NCBI GenBank assembly: GCA_019308645.1
Contig: JAFDHR010000205.1
Span: 1 to 8,949 of the forward strand
Reading direction: 5' to 3'
Source: Deltaproteobacteria bacterium
Lineage (GTDB): Bacteria; Desulfobacterota; DSM-4660; Desulfatiglandales; B25-G16
DNA length: 8,949 bases
The stretch's first letter is position 1. Each line of letters starts with the position of its first letter. The notes beneath the pieces were generated by a model. The model made no database searches. It worked only from the letters and a program-made list of their open reading frames with translations, and was not told the DNA's origin. A program made the translations under genes and the position numbers. Shown here in pieces: positions 1-5,351 of this stretch.

Positions 1-946
1 ATCGTCCAGGTGGTCAGTAACGATATGCCCAATGGTATCCATTTTTGATAAATCAGCGGCAGATAAACGAACTGTAGCTCCTTGTGCATTTTGTAATACC
101 TGTTCACTATTACGAGCCCCTGCGATTGCACATGTGTTTGGTTTAGCAATGACCCAGGCCAGTGCCAGTTGTCCAAGGCTCACGCCATTTCGTTGGGCAA
201 TAGGCCGAAGTTTGGCCAGCGCTTGGTGTACTCGATGTGAATTTTCAGGTTTTAATAACTTGTTTTTTGATCGGTGATCTCCTCTTGGAAATGTGTGATC
301 AGGAGCGAATTTACCCGTGAGAATTCCCTGAGCCATAGGAGAATAGGCAAGAATAGTGATGTTGTTAGATGTTGTTATTTGCACAGTAAGGCATTGCATC
401 CTTTTCCACATGTCGCCAAAAAAGGGAGTAGGGGGGTTGAAGACTATCGATGCGAGCGAACTTGGTTGCTTCCTCCAGTTGGATACGAGAGAAATTTGAG
501 ACACCAATAGCCCGAATCTTTCCCTGTTCTTTCAAGTCATTCATTGCCCTCATAGTTTCCTCGATAGGGACATATTTACTACCCCAGGAGCCGGCTGGCC
601 AATGGACATGGTAGAGGTCGATATAGTCGGTTTTAAGATTTTTGAGGGAGCGATGGAATGCTTCAATAACCTGGTCGTATTGAAGATGGTTGGGGGATAC
701 CTTGGTTGCGTAAATGACCTTGTCCCGAACATCAATTAGAGCTTCTCCTATTATCCGCTCGGAATGACCCCTTCCGTATTCTTCGGCGGTGTCAAACGTT
801 GTGATGCCAGCCTGAAAAGCGGTCCGAATGGCCTTAGTGGTCTCGGCATCATCAATCCCTGCCCACATGTTTTTGCCAGCTTGCCAGGTGCCCATAATGA
901 TAGGCGTTATTTTTACATCCGATGTTCCAAGCGAGCATAGTTCCAT
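1..946 (-). pseudogene. aldo/keto reductase, frameshifted by a 10-bp tandem duplication; 3' end beyond the window
   Basis: NAD(P)H-dependent oxidoreductase of the aldo/keto reductase superfamily, expected to be cytosolic and to reduce carbonyl compounds; the substrate cannot be read from sequence. The N-terminal frame (946 to 365, 193 residues) carries the whole catalytic tetrad: D52 and Y57 in FDTAEEYGRG, K82 in ATKVSP and H115 in LYHVHWP. It also has IRAIGVSNFS and QPPYSLFWRHVEKDAMPYC, typical of the aryl-alcohol dehydrogenase-like branch. This frame stops at 365-367. The rest of the barrel continues in another frame from about 357 to 1 (119 codons, no stop): ILAYSPMAQGILTGKF, then the cofactor region NKLLKPENSHRV and AIAGARNSEQVLQNA. 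Both parts fit one protein of about 312 residues plus a short missing tail, close to family length. The start ATG (946-944) has AAGGAG at 953-958. The truncated form lacks the C-terminal cofactor-binding region and should be inactive. Confidence 0.9.
357..376 (-). repeat. 10-bp tandem duplication that breaks the aldo/keto reductase frame
   Basis: Read on the minus strand, AACAACATCT (376-367) is followed directly by AACAACATCA (366-357), a 9-of-10 tandem repeat. The stop TAA spans the junction. Deleting one copy makes the codons read ANNNITILAYSP, the expected continuation of the reductase after MPYC. The broken frame is therefore explained by a single 10-nt insertion, most easily by replication slippage. 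Confidence 0.88.
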
Positions 947-1145
947 GTCAGTCTCCTTGCTTTGAGATTCATACTTGACTTATAATTTGTTAACCACATA
1001 ACCTATTAAAAGACAAAGAAATAATATCTTACGCCTTCCATGAGGTATATAAGTAAAAACTTTTTCTTTGAAATTGATTCTTTTTTATTTGACCTTGATT
1101 GTAGTGAGAGACTTGTCATTTGTTTTGTTTTTTCATTGCCTGTAA
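947..1145. other. AT-rich intergenic stretch between divergent genes
   Basis: Together with the repeat element at 1146-1247 this forms a gap of 354 bp between the minus-strand reductase and the plus-strand gene starting at 1301. Apart from the reductase's ribosome binding site (953-958) I see no convincing promoter, RNA gene or coding sequence. Short AT-rich hexamers occur on both strands but none has a good partner at 16-18 bp. Both divergent promoters must lie in this gap or inside the repeat. Confidence 0.5.
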
Positions 1146-1247
1146 CTCAGGTATCTTGCCACAAAGGCACCAAGGTTAGAGAATTATTCTTTATTATAGC
1201 TTTTTTATCTCCTCTTTGGGCCTTTGTGCCTTGGTGGCTGAATAGTT
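1146..1247. repeat. dispersed inverted-repeat element, copy 1
   Basis: A 102-bp element starting CTCAGGTATCTTGCCACAAA and ending CCTTGGTGGCTGAATAGTT. Its two arms are imperfect inverted repeats: GCCACAAAGGCACCAAGG on the left against the reverse complement GCCACCAAGGCACAAAGG on the right, 16 of 18 matching. The middle is AT-rich. A longer second copy in the same orientation lies at 2204-2377. Sequences of this CCACCAAGGCACAAAG type are common intergenic repeats in environmental bacteria. No coding capacity is likely. Confidence 0.8.
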
Positions 1248-1300
1248 TTCATAGGCTTATCAATTGAAATCCATCATCACCTCTATCAATCATTAGAAAA

Positions 1301-2179
1301 ATGTGCTGCATAAATACTGGAAGACTGGAATTAAAATTAGAAGTGGTTCCAGTGGAATCTTTATTACCGCATGAAGCAACCTTTCCACACATTGTAAATA
1401 AATTAATTTTAGAGTTTACAAATTTGGCAAAATTACAAAATCCAATCATTATTGATGAAAATGATATATTATTAGATGGTAATCATCGTGCCTTTGTTTT
1501 CAAAAAATTGCACTTTAAATATATTTCGGTGTGCAAAATCAATTATTTCAATAAAAATGTAAAGTTACGATATTGGTATAGATTGCTGAAGAATATTAAA
1601 AGTTTTGATTTGCTTAAACAGATTATTGAAGACATGAATGGGAGTGTTACGCAAGTAACGGACAAGAAAACATTAACAAAAGTATTGGAGAATAATAGTC
1701 TTAATTGTGGCATTCAGCAGGGCGATTTTTATGCAGCAATCAGTTTTAATAAAGATATTGTAAATGATGCAGTGAGCGCTTATGATTTTTTGGAAAAAAT
1801 CCAAAATAAATTAATAAAGGAAGGTATCGAATTAAAATATATTCCGGATCAATATGTGCACGAACGTAAATTTTGTAATGAATTGAAAGATAATGAAGTA
1901 GTGATTTGGACACCACAAATAACAAAAGAAATGGTGATAGATGCTGCAAAAAAGGGAAAGGTATTCGCACCCAGGACAACGCGCAATCTGATCCCATCGC
2001 GACCGATAAATGTCAATGTTCCAAGCCATTGGTTTAAAGAAAATATTTTATTAGAAGAAATCAATAAGAGATTCTCAACATTTCTTGAGAGCAAACAGGT
2101 AAAGCGATTTGGTCCAGGCCAGATCATTGATGGGAGGTACTACGGAGAAGAATTGTTTATTTATTTCGATAAAAAGTAA
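1301..2179 (+). CDS. ParB/sulfiredoxin-fold protein resembling free-serine kinases SbnI and SerK
   Basis: 292 residues. The N-terminal part has the ParB/Srx layout: a first strand VVPVESLLPHE (15-25), then NPIIIDENDILLDGNHRAFVF (47-67) with the DGNHR box at 59-63, which matches the DGxHR nucleotide-binding box of this fold. The C-terminal half has KGKVFAPRTTRNLIPSR (218-234) followed by a strand INVNVP. Its order and spacing match my memory of staphylococcal SbnI, an ATP-dependent kinase that makes O-phospho-L-serine for siderophore synthesis; archaeal SerK is a related ADP-dependent enzyme. E25, right after H24, sits where I place the catalytic glutamate of those enzymes. The next gene is a SerB-like protein, so a phosphoserine role is plausible but inferred. 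The gene is clearly more AT-rich than its neighbours and lies between two repeat copies, suggesting acquisition. An in-frame stop at 1265-1267 limits the start; no good Shine-Dalgarno precedes 1301. A plain ParB-like DNA-binding protein is the main alternative. Confidence 0.7.
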   Translation: MCCINTGRLELKLEVVPVESLLPHEATFPHIVNKLILEFTNLAKLQNPIIIDENDILLDGNHRAFVFKKLHFKYISVCKINYFNKNVKLRYWYRLLKNIKSFDLLKQIIEDMNGSVTQVTDKKTLTKVLENNSLNCGIQQGDFYAAISFNKDIVNDAVSAYDFLEKIQNKLIKEGIELKYIPDQYVHERKFCNELKDNEVVIWTPQITKEMVIDAAKKGKVFAPRTTRNLIPSRPINVNVPSHWFKENILLEEINKRFSTFLESKQVKRFGPGQIIDGRYYGEELFIYFDKK

Positions 2180-2203
2180 TACTTGTTAAGTAATTGGCAA
2201 CTG

Positions 2204-2377
2204 CTCAGGTATCTTGCCACAAAGCCACCAAGATTATAGAATTATTATTTATAATAGCCTTTTTAATGCGCCTGAGGCGCATTAATGCGTTTCACATTGA
2301 AATTAGCGAGAAAAGTCCGTTATTCAATTTATCTTCATCTTCTCTTTGTGTCTTTGTGCCTTGGTGGCTGAATAGTT
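2204..2377. repeat. dispersed inverted-repeat element, copy 2, longer
   Basis: Same ends and orientation as the copy at 1146-1247: CTCAGGTATCTTGCCACAAA at the left and CCTTGGTGGCTGAATAGTT at the right. It is 72 bp longer, the extra sequence lying in the middle. The extra part holds a perfect palindrome (2263-2285). The element fills most of the gap between the two surrounding genes and ends 36 bp before the next start codon, so it will be part of the leader or promoter region of the serB-like gene. Confidence 0.8.
2263..2285. repeat. perfect 10-bp-stem hairpin inside repeat copy 2
   Basis: TTAATGCGCC, then TGA, then GGCGCATTAA: a perfect 10-bp stem with a three-base loop. There is no following T-run, so it is not a typical intrinsic terminator. 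It lies in the part of copy 2 that is absent from copy 1. Confidence 0.75.
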
Positions 2378-2413
2378 ACATTAATTGTTCAAATAGGAAA
2401 AGAGGAATTTGAG

Positions 2414-3652
2414 ATGGGCAACAAACATAAACTTGTAAGCCTATCAGCGATAGGCCTTGATTCTCCCGGTTTGGTTTCAAAAATCACAACAGAAATATTT
2501 GAAATAGGCGGTAATATTATCGATGTAGAAGAATATTGCCGGAGAGATTTATTTTCAATATTCCTTATCATTGATTTCTCAGCGTCTAAGAATTCAATGG
2601 ATGAGATAATTACTATCTTGAAGGCAATTGAAAATGAGACAGGTCTGAAGGTTAGCGTGGGAATATACGATGAGGAAGAAATTCCTCGTTTAGATGAAAA
2701 AGAACTCCACATAGTAACTATCTTAGGGGTGGATCAACCTGGAATCATTGCGAATGTCTCTACTTTTTTTCAAAGATGTAATATTAATATACAAAATTGC
2801 AGGATGATTGCCCGTGGTAAGTTTTTTTCAATGGAGCTGGTTGTAGACACCAGCAAGATGATTGTTGAACCACGCTTGTCTCGTAAGGAAGCAATTGAAA
2901 AAATGAAAGACGAATTAAAGAGTTTATGCGTAAAAATAAATCAAAGCGTTGTAATTCAGAGTGAAAATATATACAAGAGGGCGAAAAAGCTTATTGTTTT
3001 CGATGTAGAATCTACCTTGATCCAAATCCCTTCCCTTACAAATCTATTGAAAAAGATAGAAGGAAAAGCAAGATCGATTGAGAGCACATTCAAATTTTCC
3101 GATGATAATAAAGGTGATATGCAATCACTTATTGAAAATATACGTATGCTCAAGGGTATGCATATGAGTGACTTAGAGAAGTTTAGCGAGATTCTCCAAT
3201 TAAATCCCGGAACACTTGAATTGGTACGAATTTTAAAATCGATGGGTTTCAAGATTGCACTTTTGTCATCTGGCTTTAATTTTGTTATTAAGAAACTTTT
3301 TGAAGCAGCAGGTGTTGATTACGCATTCTCAAACACCCTTAAGATTGATGAAAATGGGATAATTACCGGTGAATTGGAAGAACCTGTAATTACTGGCACA
3401 ACTAAAAATGAAATTCTTGAATTCATCATGAATCTTGAGAATGTCAGCCGTGATCAAGTAATAGCTGTTGGTGATGGTTCTACCAGTTCTCATTTTATAA
3501 CAAATAGCGGTCTATCTATTGCATTTAAACCAGATGAAACAGGCGTGAAAACCGACGGAATCTTTAGCAGTGATCAGATCACTAACCTTTTATATTGTTT
3601 GGGGATTCCTAAGATGGAACTGGATAAATATTTAAAGGAGGGTCATGGATAG
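2414..3652 (+). CDS. serB-like: SerB-like protein: two ACT domains plus a HAD domain with an altered active site
   Basis: 412 residues, the layout of long SerB phosphoserine phosphatases, which make L-serine from O-phospho-L-serine. ACT domain 1 (about 7-85) contains GLDSPGLVSKIT; ACT domain 2 (about 98-175) contains GVDQPGIIANVS; these usually bind amino acids such as serine. The HAD domain (about 190-400) keeps the nucleophile D197 and T201 in FDVEST, S285 in LLSSGF, K331 in TTKNEIL and the motif-IV D354 in VGDG. Aligned with the M. jannaschii enzyme from memory, the general acid is Glu (E199), the second metal-side Asp of GDGAND is Ser (S358 in GDGSTSS), and the serine-binding Glu and Arg are Pro206 and Asn242. 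This points to a changed substrate, weak activity or a sensor role. AGAGGA at 2401-2406 supports the start. The upstream neighbour is the SbnI/SerK-like gene. Confidence 0.85.
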   Translation: MGNKHKLVSLSAIGLDSPGLVSKITTEIFEIGGNIIDVEEYCRRDLFSIFLIIDFSASKNSMDEIITILKAIENETGLKVSVGIYDEEEIPRLDEKELHIVTILGVDQPGIIANVSTFFQRCNINIQNCRMIARGKFFSMELVVDTSKMIVEPRLSRKEAIEKMKDELKSLCVKINQSVVIQSENIYKRAKKLIVFDVESTLIQIPSLTNLLKKIEGKARSIESTFKFSDDNKGDMQSLIENIRMLKGMHMSDLEKFSEILQLNPGTLELVRILKSMGFKIALLSSGFNFVIKKLFEAAGVDYAFSNTLKIDENGIITGELEEPVITGTTKNEILEFIMNLENVSRDQVIAVGDGSTSSHFITNSGLSIAFKPDETGVKTDGIFSSDQITNLLYCLGIPKMELDKYLKEGHG

Positions 3653-3806
3653 TTTAACTACCCAGGTTGTCAGGTTCAAGCCCGCGACGGCCATTATCAA
3701 GGAGAACAACTCGTTACTATTTAAAAGTATATGTCTTAAATTCAACTCCTTGAAATCAGGTCTGGGCCAGGGGTTCACAGTTCAGGGGTTCAAGCTGGAG
3801 ATTTAA
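3645..3806 (+). CDS. small ORF overlapping the serB-like stop; possible gene remnant
   Basis: 53 codons beginning MDSLTTQVVRFKPATAIIKE. The ATG overlaps the end of the serB-like gene by 8 bp and is preceded by AAAGGAGG (3634-3641), a strong Shine-Dalgarno at good spacing, so translational coupling is likely if it is expressed. The first 25 or so codons look like ordinary protein. The last 16 codons fall in repeat DNA (GGGGTTCACAGTTCAGGGGTTC), so the ORF may be the head of an operon gene cut off by repeat insertion or rearrangement. I do not recognise the N-terminus as any family. Confidence 0.35.
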   Translation: MDSLTTQVVRFKPATAIIKENNSLLFKSICLKFNSLKSGLGQGFTVQGFKLEI

Positions 3807-3892
3807 ACCATTGTCAATGCCAAGACACCTCAACCGGCTCATGAACAAACCGCATTTAACGCTTAATGGTTCAGCAAATAACCATTGAACCC

Positions 3893-3925
3893 CGCCTGTC
3901 CCGATACAATCGGGGCGGGCAGGCG
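3893..3925. repeat. GC-rich imperfect hairpin
   Basis: Inner stem CCCGAT (3900-3905) with ATCGGG (3909-3914) around the loop ACA; outer stem CGCCTG (3893-3898) with CAGGCG (3920-3925), with a one- versus five-base bulge between them. It stands out as GC-rich in AT-rich surroundings. No T-run follows, so I prefer a REP-like repeat over a terminator. Confidence 0.65.
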
Positions 3926-3991
3926 TGAACTTGGAACTTTGAACCTGAGCAGTTCCAAATCTTGATGGTCTCGTAAAAAGTCTCAACAACA

Positions 3992-4071
3992 TGTCATTTC
4001 GAGCGAAGCGAGAAATCTTACCAATGTAACATGCTGAAAACACAAGATTTCTCCTTCCAGTCGAAATGACA
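3992..4071. repeat. palindromic dispersed repeat
   Basis: Two 28-bp arms, 3992-4019 beginning TGTCATTTCGAGCGAAGCGA and 4044-4071 ending TCGAAATGACA, are inverted relative to each other with 23 of 28 matching and a 24-bp loop. Elements of the TGTCATTTCGA...GAGAAATCTT kind occur widely in intergenic DNA of diverse environmental bacteria. No obvious target duplication borders this copy. Confidence 0.75.
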
Positions 4072-4139
4072 GATTAAATGTAACAATGCAGTATAGAGAT
4101 TTCGGTTTCTATAGTTGAATCGAAATTCGTGTTATTTGA

Positions 4140-4147
4140 GAAATATG
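4140..4147. repeat. 8-bp target-site duplication, left
   Basis: GAAATATG, repeated exactly at 4440-4447 on the other side of the inverted-repeat element at 4148-4439. Confidence 0.85.
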
Positions 4148-4439
4148 GTAACATTTTAGCTCTTTTAAAACTCCCTCTGGCCTTTATTAAAGGCCACATA
4201 GTTATCCATGGTGATACGTATGAGCATGGGGATGTCTTTTTTTACATCATGCCCTCTAAGATGGGGCCTCAGCGTGCCGCTTCAAACTGGTGCACACGAA
4301 CAAAGGCCCTAGAAGACAATGACGAGTTGCTCGTGCACATGGTTTGAAGCGGCCTACCAGCTCGTTTTTGTGAGAGCATGATAAAAAAAGACATCTCCAT
4401 GCTCATTTAACAGGGAATTTCAAAGAGCTAAAATGTTAC
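4148..4439. mobile_element. 292-bp IS66-type MITE (non-autonomous element)
   Basis: The ends are perfect 18-bp terminal inverted repeats: GTAACATTTTAGCTCTTT at 4148-4165 and its reverse complement at 4422-4439. They are flanked by the 8-bp direct repeat GAAATATG. Ends beginning GTAA and 8-bp duplications are the family signature of IS66, as I know it. The inside is also palindromic: 4221-4244 pairs with 4382-4405 (23 of 24), and 4276-4287 pairs with 4342-4353 (12 of 12). A separate hairpin GGCCTTTATTAAAGGCC lies at 4179-4195 in the left arm only. No transposase is encoded; an autonomous IS66 copy elsewhere would have to move it. The transcript would fold into a long stem-loop. Confidence 0.85.
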
Positions 4440-4447
4440 GAAATATG
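4440..4447. repeat. 8-bp target-site duplication, right
   Basis: GAAATATG, identical to 4140-4147. Its last G is also the first base of the Shine-Dalgarno GGAG (4447-4450) of the next gene, so the insertion landed at the edge of that ribosome binding site and left it intact. Confidence 0.85.
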
Positions 4448-4457
4448 GAGTTTTTAC

Positions 4458-5351
4458 GTGAATAAACCCACTGAATTTCTGGCTGATACTTCCCTCTTAT
4501 TCATTGCCATTATATGGGGAAGCACCTTCATTATCGTGAAGCAGTCTGTAGAAAATATTCCGGTATTTTCGTTTTTATTCATGAGGTTTGCACTGGCAGG
4601 GATGTTACTTATTCTCATCAACGCCCCTAAATTGAAAGTTATTGATAAAGGTGTTCTTGCAGATGGCGCGATGCTTAGCATAGCTATTTTCTTAGCCTAC
4701 GCATTCCAAACCTTTGCTTTAACAGTTACCTCTGCCTCTATTACGGCTTTCATCACAGGTCTTTTCGTTGTCTTCGTTCCTATCCTATCAAGTGTTTTCT
4801 TGAGGAAATTGCCGCGCCAAGAGGCCATAGTAGGGGTAATATTTGCCACTATTGGTCTTGGTCTCATCACATTGCAGGGTAAATTTCTCTTGTCTTTTGG
4901 TGAATTTTTGGCCCTTGTGTGCGCTTTTTTTATCGCTATACATATCATTTTGACAGATAAACTCTCCAGGAGAAACGACTTCGGCCTGCTCACTATGGTG
5001 CAGGTAAGTATGGTGGCGCTTTTTTCTCTCATTTTCTCTCTTTTCTTGGACCCTCGTATCATTCCTGTGCAATTTAATAACCAACTCATTTTCTCCTTAA
5101 TCATCAACGGCATTTTTGCAACTGCCATAGCATTTGTCATCCAGACTGGCATGCAAAAACACACCACACCCACCAAAGCTGCTATCATTTTTATTATGGA
5201 GCCGGTATCTTCTACCTTTTTCAGCTACTGGATCGGAGGAGAACTTCTAACTGTCAAACAGTATGTGGGCACTTCCTTTATCCTGTTAGCCATGGTATTT
5301 ACAGAAGCTGGAACATATTTGAAAATGAAGAGGGAGGCGACCTTTGGTTAA
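4458..5351 (+). CDS. EamA/DMT-superfamily transporter, first of a pair
   Basis: 297-residue inner-membrane protein of the drug/metabolite transporter superfamily, likely an exporter of a small metabolite or amino acid; the substrate cannot be read. It has the two-EamA-domain layout with about ten hydrophobic segments. WGSTFIIVKQ (20-29) lies in the first segment, which is the usual family start, and IIFIMEPVSSTFFSYWIGGE (243-262) is the typical late motif of domain 2. Length is normal. The start codon is GTG with GGAG at 4447-4450, seven bases upstream. The gene directly follows the MITE and overlaps the next transporter gene by 8 bp, so the two are probably cotranscribed. Any original promoter is now at least 300 bp away or replaced by one in the MITE. 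Confidence 0.87.
   Translation: MNKPTEFLADTSLLFIAIIWGSTFIIVKQSVENIPVFSFLFMRFALAGMLLILINAPKLKVIDKGVLADGAMLSIAIFLAYAFQTFALTVTSASITAFITGLFVVFVPILSSVFLRKLPRQEAIVGVIFATIGLGLITLQGKFLLSFGEFLALVCAFFIAIHIILTDKLSRRNDFGLLTMVQVSMVALFSLIFSLFLDPRIIPVQFNNQLIFSLIINGIFATAIAFVIQTGMQKHTTPTKAAIIFIMEPVSSTFFSYWIGGELLTVKQYVGTSFILLAMVFTEAGTYLKMKREATFG

What the first reader, a model, noticed from the sequence alone, without database searches (positions are those of the whole stretch)
1301..3652. Possible serine kinase beside an altered phosphoserine phosphatase
A ParB/Srx-fold protein with features of the free-serine kinases SbnI and SerK (HE at 24-25, DGNHR box, TTRNLIPSR C-terminal motif) is followed by a double-ACT SerB-like protein. 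If the first makes O-phospho-L-serine and the second binds serine or phosphoserine through its ACT or HAD domains, the pair could form a serine/phosphoserine switch or feed a phosphoserine-dependent pathway. The motif resemblance is seen; the joint function is inferred.
Basis: partly seen in the sequence, partly recalled or inferred. Interest (0 to 1): 0.72.

Follow-up and report, generated by a model that had tools for sequence, protein, structure and literature searches.

The report
Serine kinase paired with altered phosphatase
Two neighbouring bacterial genes, a likely kinase of the free amino acid serine and a rebuilt relative of phosphoserine phosphatase, usually occur together and in about half of the relatives read here sit beside glycine-to-serine genes, hinting at a little-known exit of serine carbon through phosphoserine.

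Summary
ORF1 (1301-2179) is homologous to the free-serine kinases SerK and SbnI by profile, alignment and fold; E25 and D59, opposite the two residues reported as essential in SbnI, are invariant in 65 of 65 rows. ORF2 (2414-3652) has two ACT domains with intact ligand loops and a SerB-like HAD domain whose site is rebuilt, not decayed: in 140 members the nucleophile, lysine and magnesium aspartate stay, Asp+2 is Glu (139), the two phosphoserine-reading residues are replaced and new residues are nearly fixed. The pair is adjacent in 20 of 22 bacterial loci and present in the same 5 of 395 sampled genomes. Unseen from the window: in 11 of 21 relatives ORF1 follows a GcvT-GlyA fusion gene, and a separate 140-residue SerK-like protein precedes gcvH in 8 of 9 other genomes. 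SerA and SerC are common, canonical SerB rare (4 of 20). Best reading: ORF1 phosphorylates serine made from glycine, sending it via phosphoserine towards 3-phosphoglycerate; ORF2 is an ACT-sensing partner or altered phosphoryl-transfer enzyme, probably not an ordinary phosphoserine phosphatase. Kinase activity, direction and ORF2 chemistry are untested.

The parts
1301..2179 (+). ORF1, SerK/SbnI-type ParB-fold protein (292 aa)
   Evidence: NCBIfam NF053625 E 4e-16, under cut-off; AlphaFold model pLDDT 93; the nine best Foldseek PDB matches are SbnI, SerK or the P. furiosus homologue 1vk1, E 3.1e-14 to 1.9e-12
1370..1375 (+). H24-E25; E25 aligns with SerK E30 and the SbnI catalytic glutamate
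   Evidence: position checked; invariant in 65 rows
1475..1489 (+). DGNHR box (59-63); D59 aligns with the Asp of the SbnI DGVHR box
   Evidence: D59, G60, H62, R63 invariant
1925..1927 (+). K209, invariant lysine of the C-terminal part
1976..2002 (+). TTRNLIPSR motif (226-234), aligned with TTRH of SerK
2414..3652 (+). ORF2, double-ACT plus HAD protein of an altered SerB-like subfamily (412 aa)
   Evidence: Pfam; TIGR00338 127.1 bits, under cut-off; model pLDDT 78.5, best Foldseek matches M. avium SerB2
2435..2659 (+). ACT domain 1 with GxDxPG loop (GLDSPG at 2453-2470)
2705..2938 (+). ACT domain 2 with GxDxPG loop (GVDQPG at 2726-2743)
2978..3592 (+). HAD domain
3002..3010 (+). motif I D197-V-E199: nucleophile kept, Asp+2 (acid/base) replaced by Glu
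   Evidence: E in 139 of 140 family members; D in 22 of 29 other double-ACT HAD proteins, T, S or A in the other 7
3029..3034 (+). P206-S207: position of the phosphoserine amino-group reader (Glu20 of M. jannaschii PSP), replaced; S207 fixed in 140 of 140
3137..3139 (+). N242 in place of the carboxylate reader Arg56
   Evidence: N in 132 and R in 0 of 140
3266..3271 (+). S285-S286: motif II serine kept, following Gly replaced by Ser
3404..3406 (+). K331, motif III lysine kept
3470..3496 (+). motif IV GDGSTSSHF: D354 kept, Asn170/Asp171 equivalents replaced, H360 and F361 nearly fixed
1125..1247 (.). intergenic repeat copy upstream of ORF1
2183..2377 (.). second copy of the repeat, in the 234-nt gap between ORF1 and ORF2

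Best explanation
ORF1 is a free-serine kinase of a bacterial SerK-like clade: it transfers a phosphoryl group from a nucleotide to the hydroxyl of free L-serine, with E25 as base and the D59-G-N-H-R box at the phosphate and metal site. Its likely ancestral setting is the glycine cleavage / GlyA gene cluster, so the serine comes from glycine plus methylene-THF. The O-phosphoserine is then transaminated and oxidised by SerC and SerA running backwards to 3-phosphoglycerate, giving serine carbon an exit that does not pass through pyruvate. ORF2 is a neofunctionalised paralogue of double-ACT SerB; its ACT domains sense serine or glycine, and it either regulates ORF1 or has an altered phosphoryl-transfer activity. 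Shown: homology, conserved catalytic residues, pair recurrence, gcv/GlyA linkage in about half of the relatives, the rewritten HAD site, presence of SerA and SerC in most ORF1 genomes examined. Inferred: kinase activity, nucleotide used, direction of flux, the ancestral setting, and the role of ORF2.
For: Fold and profile match SerK and SbnI above every DNA-binding ParB listed. E25 and D59 align with the SbnI Glu and Asp; that Glu20 and Asp58 are required for SbnI kinase activity is from one passage of PMC9641203 citing Verstraete 2018. ORF1 follows a GcvT-GlyA fusion gene on the same strand in 11 of 21 bacterial loci whose upstream gene is visible (in L007, L011 and L017 only the GlyA half is on the contig); 18 of 20 ORF1 genomes have the fusion, two of them (G011, G017) seen only as a GlyA half at a contig end. 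All 14 genomes of the 395 sample with a SerK-like protein have it (13 with both domains, G337 only a GlyA half at a contig end), against 34 to 37 of 395 overall. A 140-aa SerK-like protein lies directly before gcvH in 8 of 9 other genomes. The archaeal SerK-like gene of L019 (Thermogladius) is beside genes similar to lpd, gcvPB, gcvPA, gcvT and glyA. SerA in 21 of 22 and SerC in 20 of 22 ORF1 genomes; canonical SerB in 4 of 20. Makino 2016 shows Ser to Cys via phosphoserine and raises Ser to 3-phosphoglycerate in Thermococcus.
Against: ORF1 scores far below the curated SerK and SbnI cut-offs. [quoted passage not shown] In the window and its nearest relatives L001-L003 the pair is not beside gcv genes; L005, very close to L004 and L007 in ORF1, also lacks the adjacency. 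Of 23 fusion-bearing genomes without an ORF1 or short SerK-like hit, 0 gave one with a wider profile, so the fusion does not need the kinase. Serine dehydratase is missing in 16 of 22 ORF1 genomes but also in 19 of 21 fusion-bearing genomes without a SerK-like protein, so that is a lineage trait. Most of the 22 ORF1 genomes are draft assemblies in many contigs (G003 is one chromosome), so absences are soft. The statistics ignore relatedness.
Confidence: 0.6

Rival explanations
1. Kinase/phosphatase valve: ORF1 phosphorylates serine and ORF2 is a divergent but working phosphoserine phosphatase, standing in for SerB in many of these genomes; ACT domains set the direction between serine and phosphoserine.
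For: SerA and SerC are common but canonical SerB is found in only 4 of 20 ORF1 genomes; 13 of 20 have neither a canonical SerB nor a ThrH-like protein (ThrH-like in G001, G002, G009, G012). Nucleophile, motif II Ser/Thr, Lys and Mg aspartate are kept in 139-140 of 140. In M. tuberculosis SerB2 the mutants D187N and D345N stay active (PMC4270767, Table 2 passage). A Desulfobacterota survey states that phosphoserine phosphatase was detected in all clades (PMC12827605, passage).
Against: [quoted passage not shown] PMC6321591, passages) are replaced: E at the first place in 9 of 140, R at the second in 0 of 140, while both are kept in the 22 other double-ACT proteins with canonical motifs. Genomes with a canonical SerB (G003, G012, G016, G017) carry the same altered ORF2.
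Confidence: 0.22
2. Phosphoserine made by ORF1 feeds cysteine synthesis (O-phosphoserine sulfhydrylase), as in Thermococcus, with ORF2 as feedback sensor.
For: Established use of SerK in T. kodakarensis (PMC5120207: abstract and sections 9, 14, 15).
Against: Serine-acetyltransferase-like proteins occur in 16 of 22 ORF1 genomes, 13 with a match of 148 bits or more, though only 1 is over the curated cut-off. The linkage seen is to glycine/GlyA genes; cysteine genes were not searched for in the flanks.
Confidence: 0.1
3. ORF1 is a nucleotide-binding regulator (ParB-like) rather than a kinase, and ORF2 its ACT-domain sensor, together controlling glycine/serine genes.
For: A SerK-like archaeal protein bound CTP (PMC12704722); SbnI is described also as a transcriptional regulator (PMC9641203 passage); the P. 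furiosus homologue was once reported as a nuclease (PMC5120207 section 9); ACT domains of ORF2 resemble GcvR.
Against: No Pfam HTH or ParB match; ParB-type structures align far worse than SerK/SbnI; catalytic Glu and Asp invariant in 65 rows; an AsnC/Lrp-type regulator is already in some of the gcv loci.
Confidence: 0.08

Closest known systems
SerK, ADP-dependent free serine kinase of Thermococcus kodakarensis, and its Pyrococcus homologue (PDB 5x0b series, 1vk1)
   Same: fold, catalytic Glu, DGxHR box, C-terminal TTRx motif, about 240 aligned columns
   Different: about 20% identity; bacterial; C-terminal extension of about 50 residues with a conserved RFGPGQxIDGRYY stretch, a version of which is also in the archaeal L019 and L023; paired with a double-ACT HAD gene; nucleotide unknown
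SbnI of Staphylococcus (staphyloferrin B locus)
   Same: fold (best Foldseek match 5uje), catalytic Glu and Asp equivalents
   Different: no siderophore genes among the window's neighbours identified; profile score far below the SbnI cut-off
Double-ACT phosphoserine phosphatase SerB/SerB2
   Same: domain order ACT-ACT-HAD, fold, nucleophile, Lys and Mg Asp, ACT ligand loops
   Different: Asp+2 is Glu; both phosphoserine readers and the N-D of motif IV replaced; nearly fixed new residues S207, N242, S286, S359, H360, F361
ThrH-like proteins (phosphoserine phosphatase / homoserine phosphotransferase; this activity is recalled and is also the NCBIfam name)
   Same: Glu at Asp+2 of motif I (D[LM]EGI in all four ThrH-like proteins of L045, L046, L047, L050)
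   Different: 203-215 residues, too short for two ACT domains; motif IV keeps N-D; weak overall similarity to ORF2
A second altered group of double-ACT HAD proteins (L109-L113, L116, L118)
   Same: double-ACT HAD proteins about 28% identical to ORF2 with a non-canonical HAD site
   Different: Asp+2 is T, S or A; the motif III lysine is not aligned; found in genomes without ORF1

Membership tests
SerK (NCBIfam NF053625 equivalog) | score over curated cut-off (380 bits) | tested here: not met
   58.8 bits, E 4e-16
SerK / SbnI free serine kinases | catalytic Glu (SerK E30 / SbnI E20) | tested here: met
   E25 aligned, invariant in 65 rows
SerK / SbnI free serine kinases | Asp of the DGxHR box (SbnI D58) | tested here: met
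   D59
SerK / SbnI free serine kinases | fold of the whole protein, not only of the ParB N-domain | tested here: met
   Foldseek 5uje E 3.1e-14 over 257 columns, 5x0k 7.1e-14 over 239
SerK / SbnI free serine kinases | phosphorylation of free L-serine | not testable with these tools
   needs an enzyme assay
SbnI (NCBIfam NF033589) | score over cut-off 350 bits | tested here: not met
   22 bits
SerB phosphoserine phosphatase (TIGR00338) | score over cut-off 144.15 bits | tested here: not met
   127.1 bits
SerB phosphoserine phosphatase | nucleophile D11, S99, K144, D167 | tested here: met
   D197, S285, K331, D354
SerB phosphoserine phosphatase | acid/base D13 | tested here: not met
   E199; E in 139 of 140 family members
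SerB phosphoserine phosphatase | substrate readers E20 and R56 | tested here: not met
   P206 and N242
SerB phosphoserine phosphatase | hydrolysis of L-phosphoserine | not testable with these tools
   needs an enzyme assay
SerB2-type ACT regulation | invariant glycine at the beta1-alpha1 turn of each ACT domain (G18, G108 of M. tuberculosis SerB2) | tested here: inconclusive
   G19 and G110 of the GxDxPG loops are invariant in 45 rows; G19 aligns with the same loop of M. avium SerB, whose second loop differs in sequence; the M. tuberculosis protein itself was not aligned, and ligand binding was not tested
Glycine cleavage / GlyA gene cluster | gcv or GlyA genes beside the pair | tested here: inconclusive
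   present in 11 of 21 relatives; none found in this window

The most novel reading that the evidence does not exclude
These anaerobes run an unrecognised exit of the reductive glycine pathway: one-carbon units and CO2 are built into glycine and serine by the Gcv proteins and the GcvT-GlyA fusion, ORF1 (or the 140-residue SerK-like protein) phosphorylates the serine, and SerC and SerA run backwards to 3-phosphoglycerate, so carbon enters gluconeogenesis without passing pyruvate. ORF2 is a new class of HAD protein, grown out of a SerB, that reads serine or glycine through its ACT domains and gates the kinase or moves the phosphoryl group to a new acceptor.
Probability: 0.25. Interest if true: 0.78.

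Novelty: new variant of a known kind. Interest (0 to 1): 0.6.

Why it matters
Makino 2016 wrote that clear-cut SerK homologues are not found in bacteria and raised, without proving it, that serine can be turned into 3-phosphoglycerate this way; SbnI is the bacterial relative described since. A bacterial clade tied by gene order in many members to glycine cleavage and GlyA makes that idea testable in a second domain of life, and would add an exit for the reductive glycine pathway in Desulfobacterota. ORF2 shows a SerB paralogue whose active site was rewritten and then held fixed, a clean case for asking what a phosphatase becomes when its substrate readers are replaced.

Tried and rejected
Rejected: ORF1 as a DNA-partition ParB (no HTH or ParB Pfam match; SerK/SbnI fit far better). 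Rejected: ORF2 as a decayed pseudogene (S207 in 140, N242 in 132, H360 in 127, F361 in 137 of 140). Absence of serine dehydratase as specific support for the kinase: dropped, because fusion-bearing genomes without a SerK-like protein lack it too. Tree of ORF1 (28 rows): adjacency to the fusion needs 5 changes (t.changes, 21 rows) or 6 (group table); 12 of 25 inner branches are open and 9 starred, the archaeal rows are long branches, so ancestral adjacency followed by losses is likely but not shown. In that tree L016 was set aside (contig edge) and L022 left out.

Rows dropped or changed on recheck: the script kept only comparison proteins with a GDG motif IV, 22 of the 30 loci given; the 8 dropped were looked at. 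One (L115) is the cut ORF2 of G015; the other 7 (L109-L113, L116, L118) are double-ACT HAD proteins with a differently altered site, so the contrast is 22 of 29 canonical, and non-canonical double-ACT HAD proteins are not unique to ORF2. The 140 family rows are all different but fall into 94 clusters at 95% identity, so they are not 140 independent cases. ThrH-like proteins, which might serve as phosphoserine phosphatases, were found in 4 of the 20 genomes.

Limits: of 1484 hits for ORF2 only the best 120 are listed, of 321 for ORF1 likewise 120, 46 of which went into A2 beside the window and 18 locus proteins. No whole genome is held for the window, so its own pathway genes could not be checked. 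G292 and G367 were not searched with TIGR00338, hence 20 and not 22 in that count. Rfam found nothing in the window; promoter and terminator scans of 900-4500 were near chance.

Literature: searched only in the held PMC library. Among the listed titles and abstract starts I saw none that reports a SerK-like kinase in a glycine cleavage cluster, a GcvT-GlyA fusion, or an ORF2-type protein. PMC12827605 was seen in passages only; it has no occurrence of 'fusion', and uses the names GCST and SHMT, so the zero counts for GcvT and GlyA say nothing. Nagata 2017 was not looked up and Verstraete 2018 is not held; neither was read.
Full report
1. What is there. The window encodes ORF1 (1301-2179) and ORF2 (2414-3652) on the same strand, 234 nt apart; most of the gap is an intergenic repeat that also lies upstream of ORF1. 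Other genes: an aldo-keto reductase frame, two EamA transporters, a TatD family nuclease, an ornithine aminotransferase; I see no evident link of these to the pair.

2. ORF1. No Pfam family matches. NCBIfam gives SerK (58.8 bits, E 4e-16) and SbnI (22 bits), both under their curated cut-offs. PDB sequence search finds the Pyrococcus/Thermococcus SerK-type chains (best E 1e-8) and, with a 65-row profile, also SbnI. The AlphaFold model (pLDDT 93) has SbnI, SerK and the P. furiosus homologue 1vk1 as its nine best PDB matches, E 3.1e-14 to 1.9e-12; ParB-type domains begin at 3.1e-5. E25 lies opposite SerK E30, the residue changed in the E30A and E30Q structures, and opposite the SbnI glutamate; D59 lies opposite the SbnI aspartate (by my count the chain numbers are two above the published Glu20 and Asp58, which I take to be a tag offset). 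That Glu20 and Asp58 are needed for SbnI kinase activity is from one passage of PMC9641203. H24, E25, D59, G60, H62, R63, W92, K209 and R228 are invariant in 65 rows, two of them archaeal.

3. ORF2. ACT-ACT-HAD, fold closest to M. avium SerB2 (pLDDT 78.5, so details of the model are not used). I compared 140 members (ORF2, the 120 listed hits, 19 locus proteins; 94 clusters at 95% identity) with other double-ACT HAD proteins. Kept: D197 (140 of 140), S285 as S or T (140), K331 (139, one gap), D354 (139, one gap). Changed: Asp+2 is E in 139; the Glu20 position is E in only 9; the Arg56 position is N in 132 and R in none; Gly100 is S in 136; Asn170 is mostly T, I or V; Asp171 mostly R, G or S. 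Nearly fixed new residues: S207 140, S359 133, H360 127, F361 137 of 140. Of 29 full-length comparison proteins, 22 have the canonical letter at every one of these places; 7 (L109-L113, L116, L118, about 28% identical to ORF2) are altered in another way, with T, S or A at Asp+2. So rewriting of double-ACT HAD proteins happened more than once, and ORF2 is one such line. The roles of Glu20 and Arg56 as readers of the amino and carboxylate groups are from passages of PMC6321591. Strong conservation speaks for a selected function rather than decay. Loss of the second motif I or motif IV acid need not kill a SerB: D187N and D345N of M. tuberculosis SerB2 remain active (PMC4270767, passages); the argument against phosphoserine rests on the two readers. 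Both ACT domains keep the GxDxPG ligand loop. All four ThrH-like proteins found (L045, L046, L047, L050) have Glu at Asp+2, so a phosphotransferase-like role is possible.

4. The pair recurs. One scan of genome contigs gave 23 loci. Of 20 bacterial loci with usable flanks, ORF2 follows ORF1 on the same strand in 18 (cut at the contig end in L015); L011 and L013 lack it; L020 is cut inside ORF1 and not counted; the archaeal L019 and L023 lack it. Two further genomes of the phylum sample have the pair (L123, L124): 20 of 22. In 395 genomes drawn from the phylum of G003, full-length ORF1 is in 5 and close ORF2 (49% identity or more, only its first 160 residues in G015) in the same 5; the next ORF2 matches are at 36% or less (hypergeometric 1.3e-11, without correction for kinship).

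5. The unseen context. ORF1 directly follows a gene that fuses GcvT with serine hydroxymethyltransferase (for L008) on the same strand in L004, L006, L007, L008, L010, L011, L013, L014, L015, L017, and in the genome of L022 on another contig piece (L057): 11 of 21 with a visible upstream gene (L016 excluded). In L007, L011 and L017 only the GlyA half is on the contig. L008, L010 and L014 add gcvH-, gcvPA- and AsnC/Lrp-like genes on the other side, L008 also gcvPB and a lipB-like gene. The fusion is somewhere in 18 of 20 ORF1 genomes, in G011 and G017 seen only as a GlyA half at a contig end. A class V aminotransferase follows ORF2 in L004, L007, L022 and L124. In the window clade (L001-L003) the upstream neighbour is DUF1786 and the downstream one an amidohydrolase-like gene (that name is my reading of the sequence).

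6. A second, separate case. Nine of the 395 genomes have a short SerK-like protein (about 140 residues) with HEE, DGHHR, TKE and PPKTSKHM or near versions (four read in full, nine found by tblastn). Two scanned copies match the SerK model at 74 and 78 bits. It lies directly before gcvH in 8 of 9 (in G355 the contig ends there), and a two-ACT protein is encoded upstream of it in 4 of 9, in G131 with one other gene between. All 14 genomes with either SerK type have the GcvT-GlyA fusion (13 with both domains, G337 a GlyA half at a contig end), against 34 of 395 with a match across both domains, 37 counting partial or split ones. Of 23 fusion-bearing genomes without a SerK-like hit, 0 gave one with a wider profile; of 40 fusion-lacking genomes, 2 gave weak hits. 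So the kinase goes with the fusion, not the reverse.

7. Pathway genes in ORF1 genomes. SerA 21 of 22, 19 over cut-off; SerC 20 of 22, 17 over cut-off; canonical SerB, over cut-off, 4 of 20; ThrH-like 4 of 20 (G001, G002, G009, G012), leaving 13 of 20 with neither; CysE-like 16 of 22, 1 over cut-off; serine dehydratase 6 of 22, but it is also found in only 2 of 21 fusion genomes without a SerK-like protein and 0 of 9 with the short one. Most of these are draft assemblies.

8. Reading. The parts add up to glycine to serine (Gcv, GlyA), serine to phosphoserine (ORF1), and phosphoserine to 3-phosphoglycerate (SerC, SerA reversed), as Makino 2016 raised for Thermococcus. They also fit a kinase/phosphatase valve if ORF2 still acts on phosphoserine. 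Direction cannot be settled from sequence.

9. Literature. In the searches I saw no listed title or abstract start that describes this pair, the fusion, or the gcv linkage. PMC5120207 was read in abstract and sections 9, 14 and 15; PMC12704722, PMC12827605, PMC6321591, PMC9641203, PMC5424206, PMC10564941 and PMC4270767 in passages only.

10. Recheck. On checking, the count of dropped comparison proteins was mended (8, not 4), the second altered group and the ThrH-like proteins were added, and partial fusion matches are now named.

Noticed in passing
L125:4162-4584, L128:1693-2115, L129:2392-2937, L131:12729-13274, and tblastn matches in L127, L130, L138, L139, L140: A SerK-like protein of about 140 residues lacking the middle part of SerK, encoded directly before gcvH in 8 of 9 genomes; may be a minimal serine kinase.
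   Followed up: partly
L008:5180-7927 and the genomes: GcvT fused to serine hydroxymethyltransferase in one protein of roughly 880-920 residues; in 34 of 395 genomes of the phylum sample.
   Followed up: partly
L109, L110, L111, L112, L113, L116, L118: A second group of double-ACT HAD proteins with a differently altered active site (T, S or A at Asp+2), in genomes without ORF1.
   Followed up: no
window 1125-1247 and 2183-2377: Two copies (81-91% identical pieces) of an intergenic repeat flank ORF1 and lie in the gap to ORF2.
   Followed up: no
window 3992-4444: Three inverted repeats with 25-28 nt arms (I1-I3) in the gap before the first EamA gene; nature unknown.
   Followed up: no
window 365-946: The aldo-keto reductase frame covers only profile positions 1-184 of 291; it looks truncated.
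   Followed up: no
L125:2084-2641, L129:1500-2039, L138:10761-11294, L139:1057-1602: A GcvR-like protein of two ACT domains upstream of the short SerK-like gene: a second association of ACT domains with a SerK fold.
   Followed up: partly
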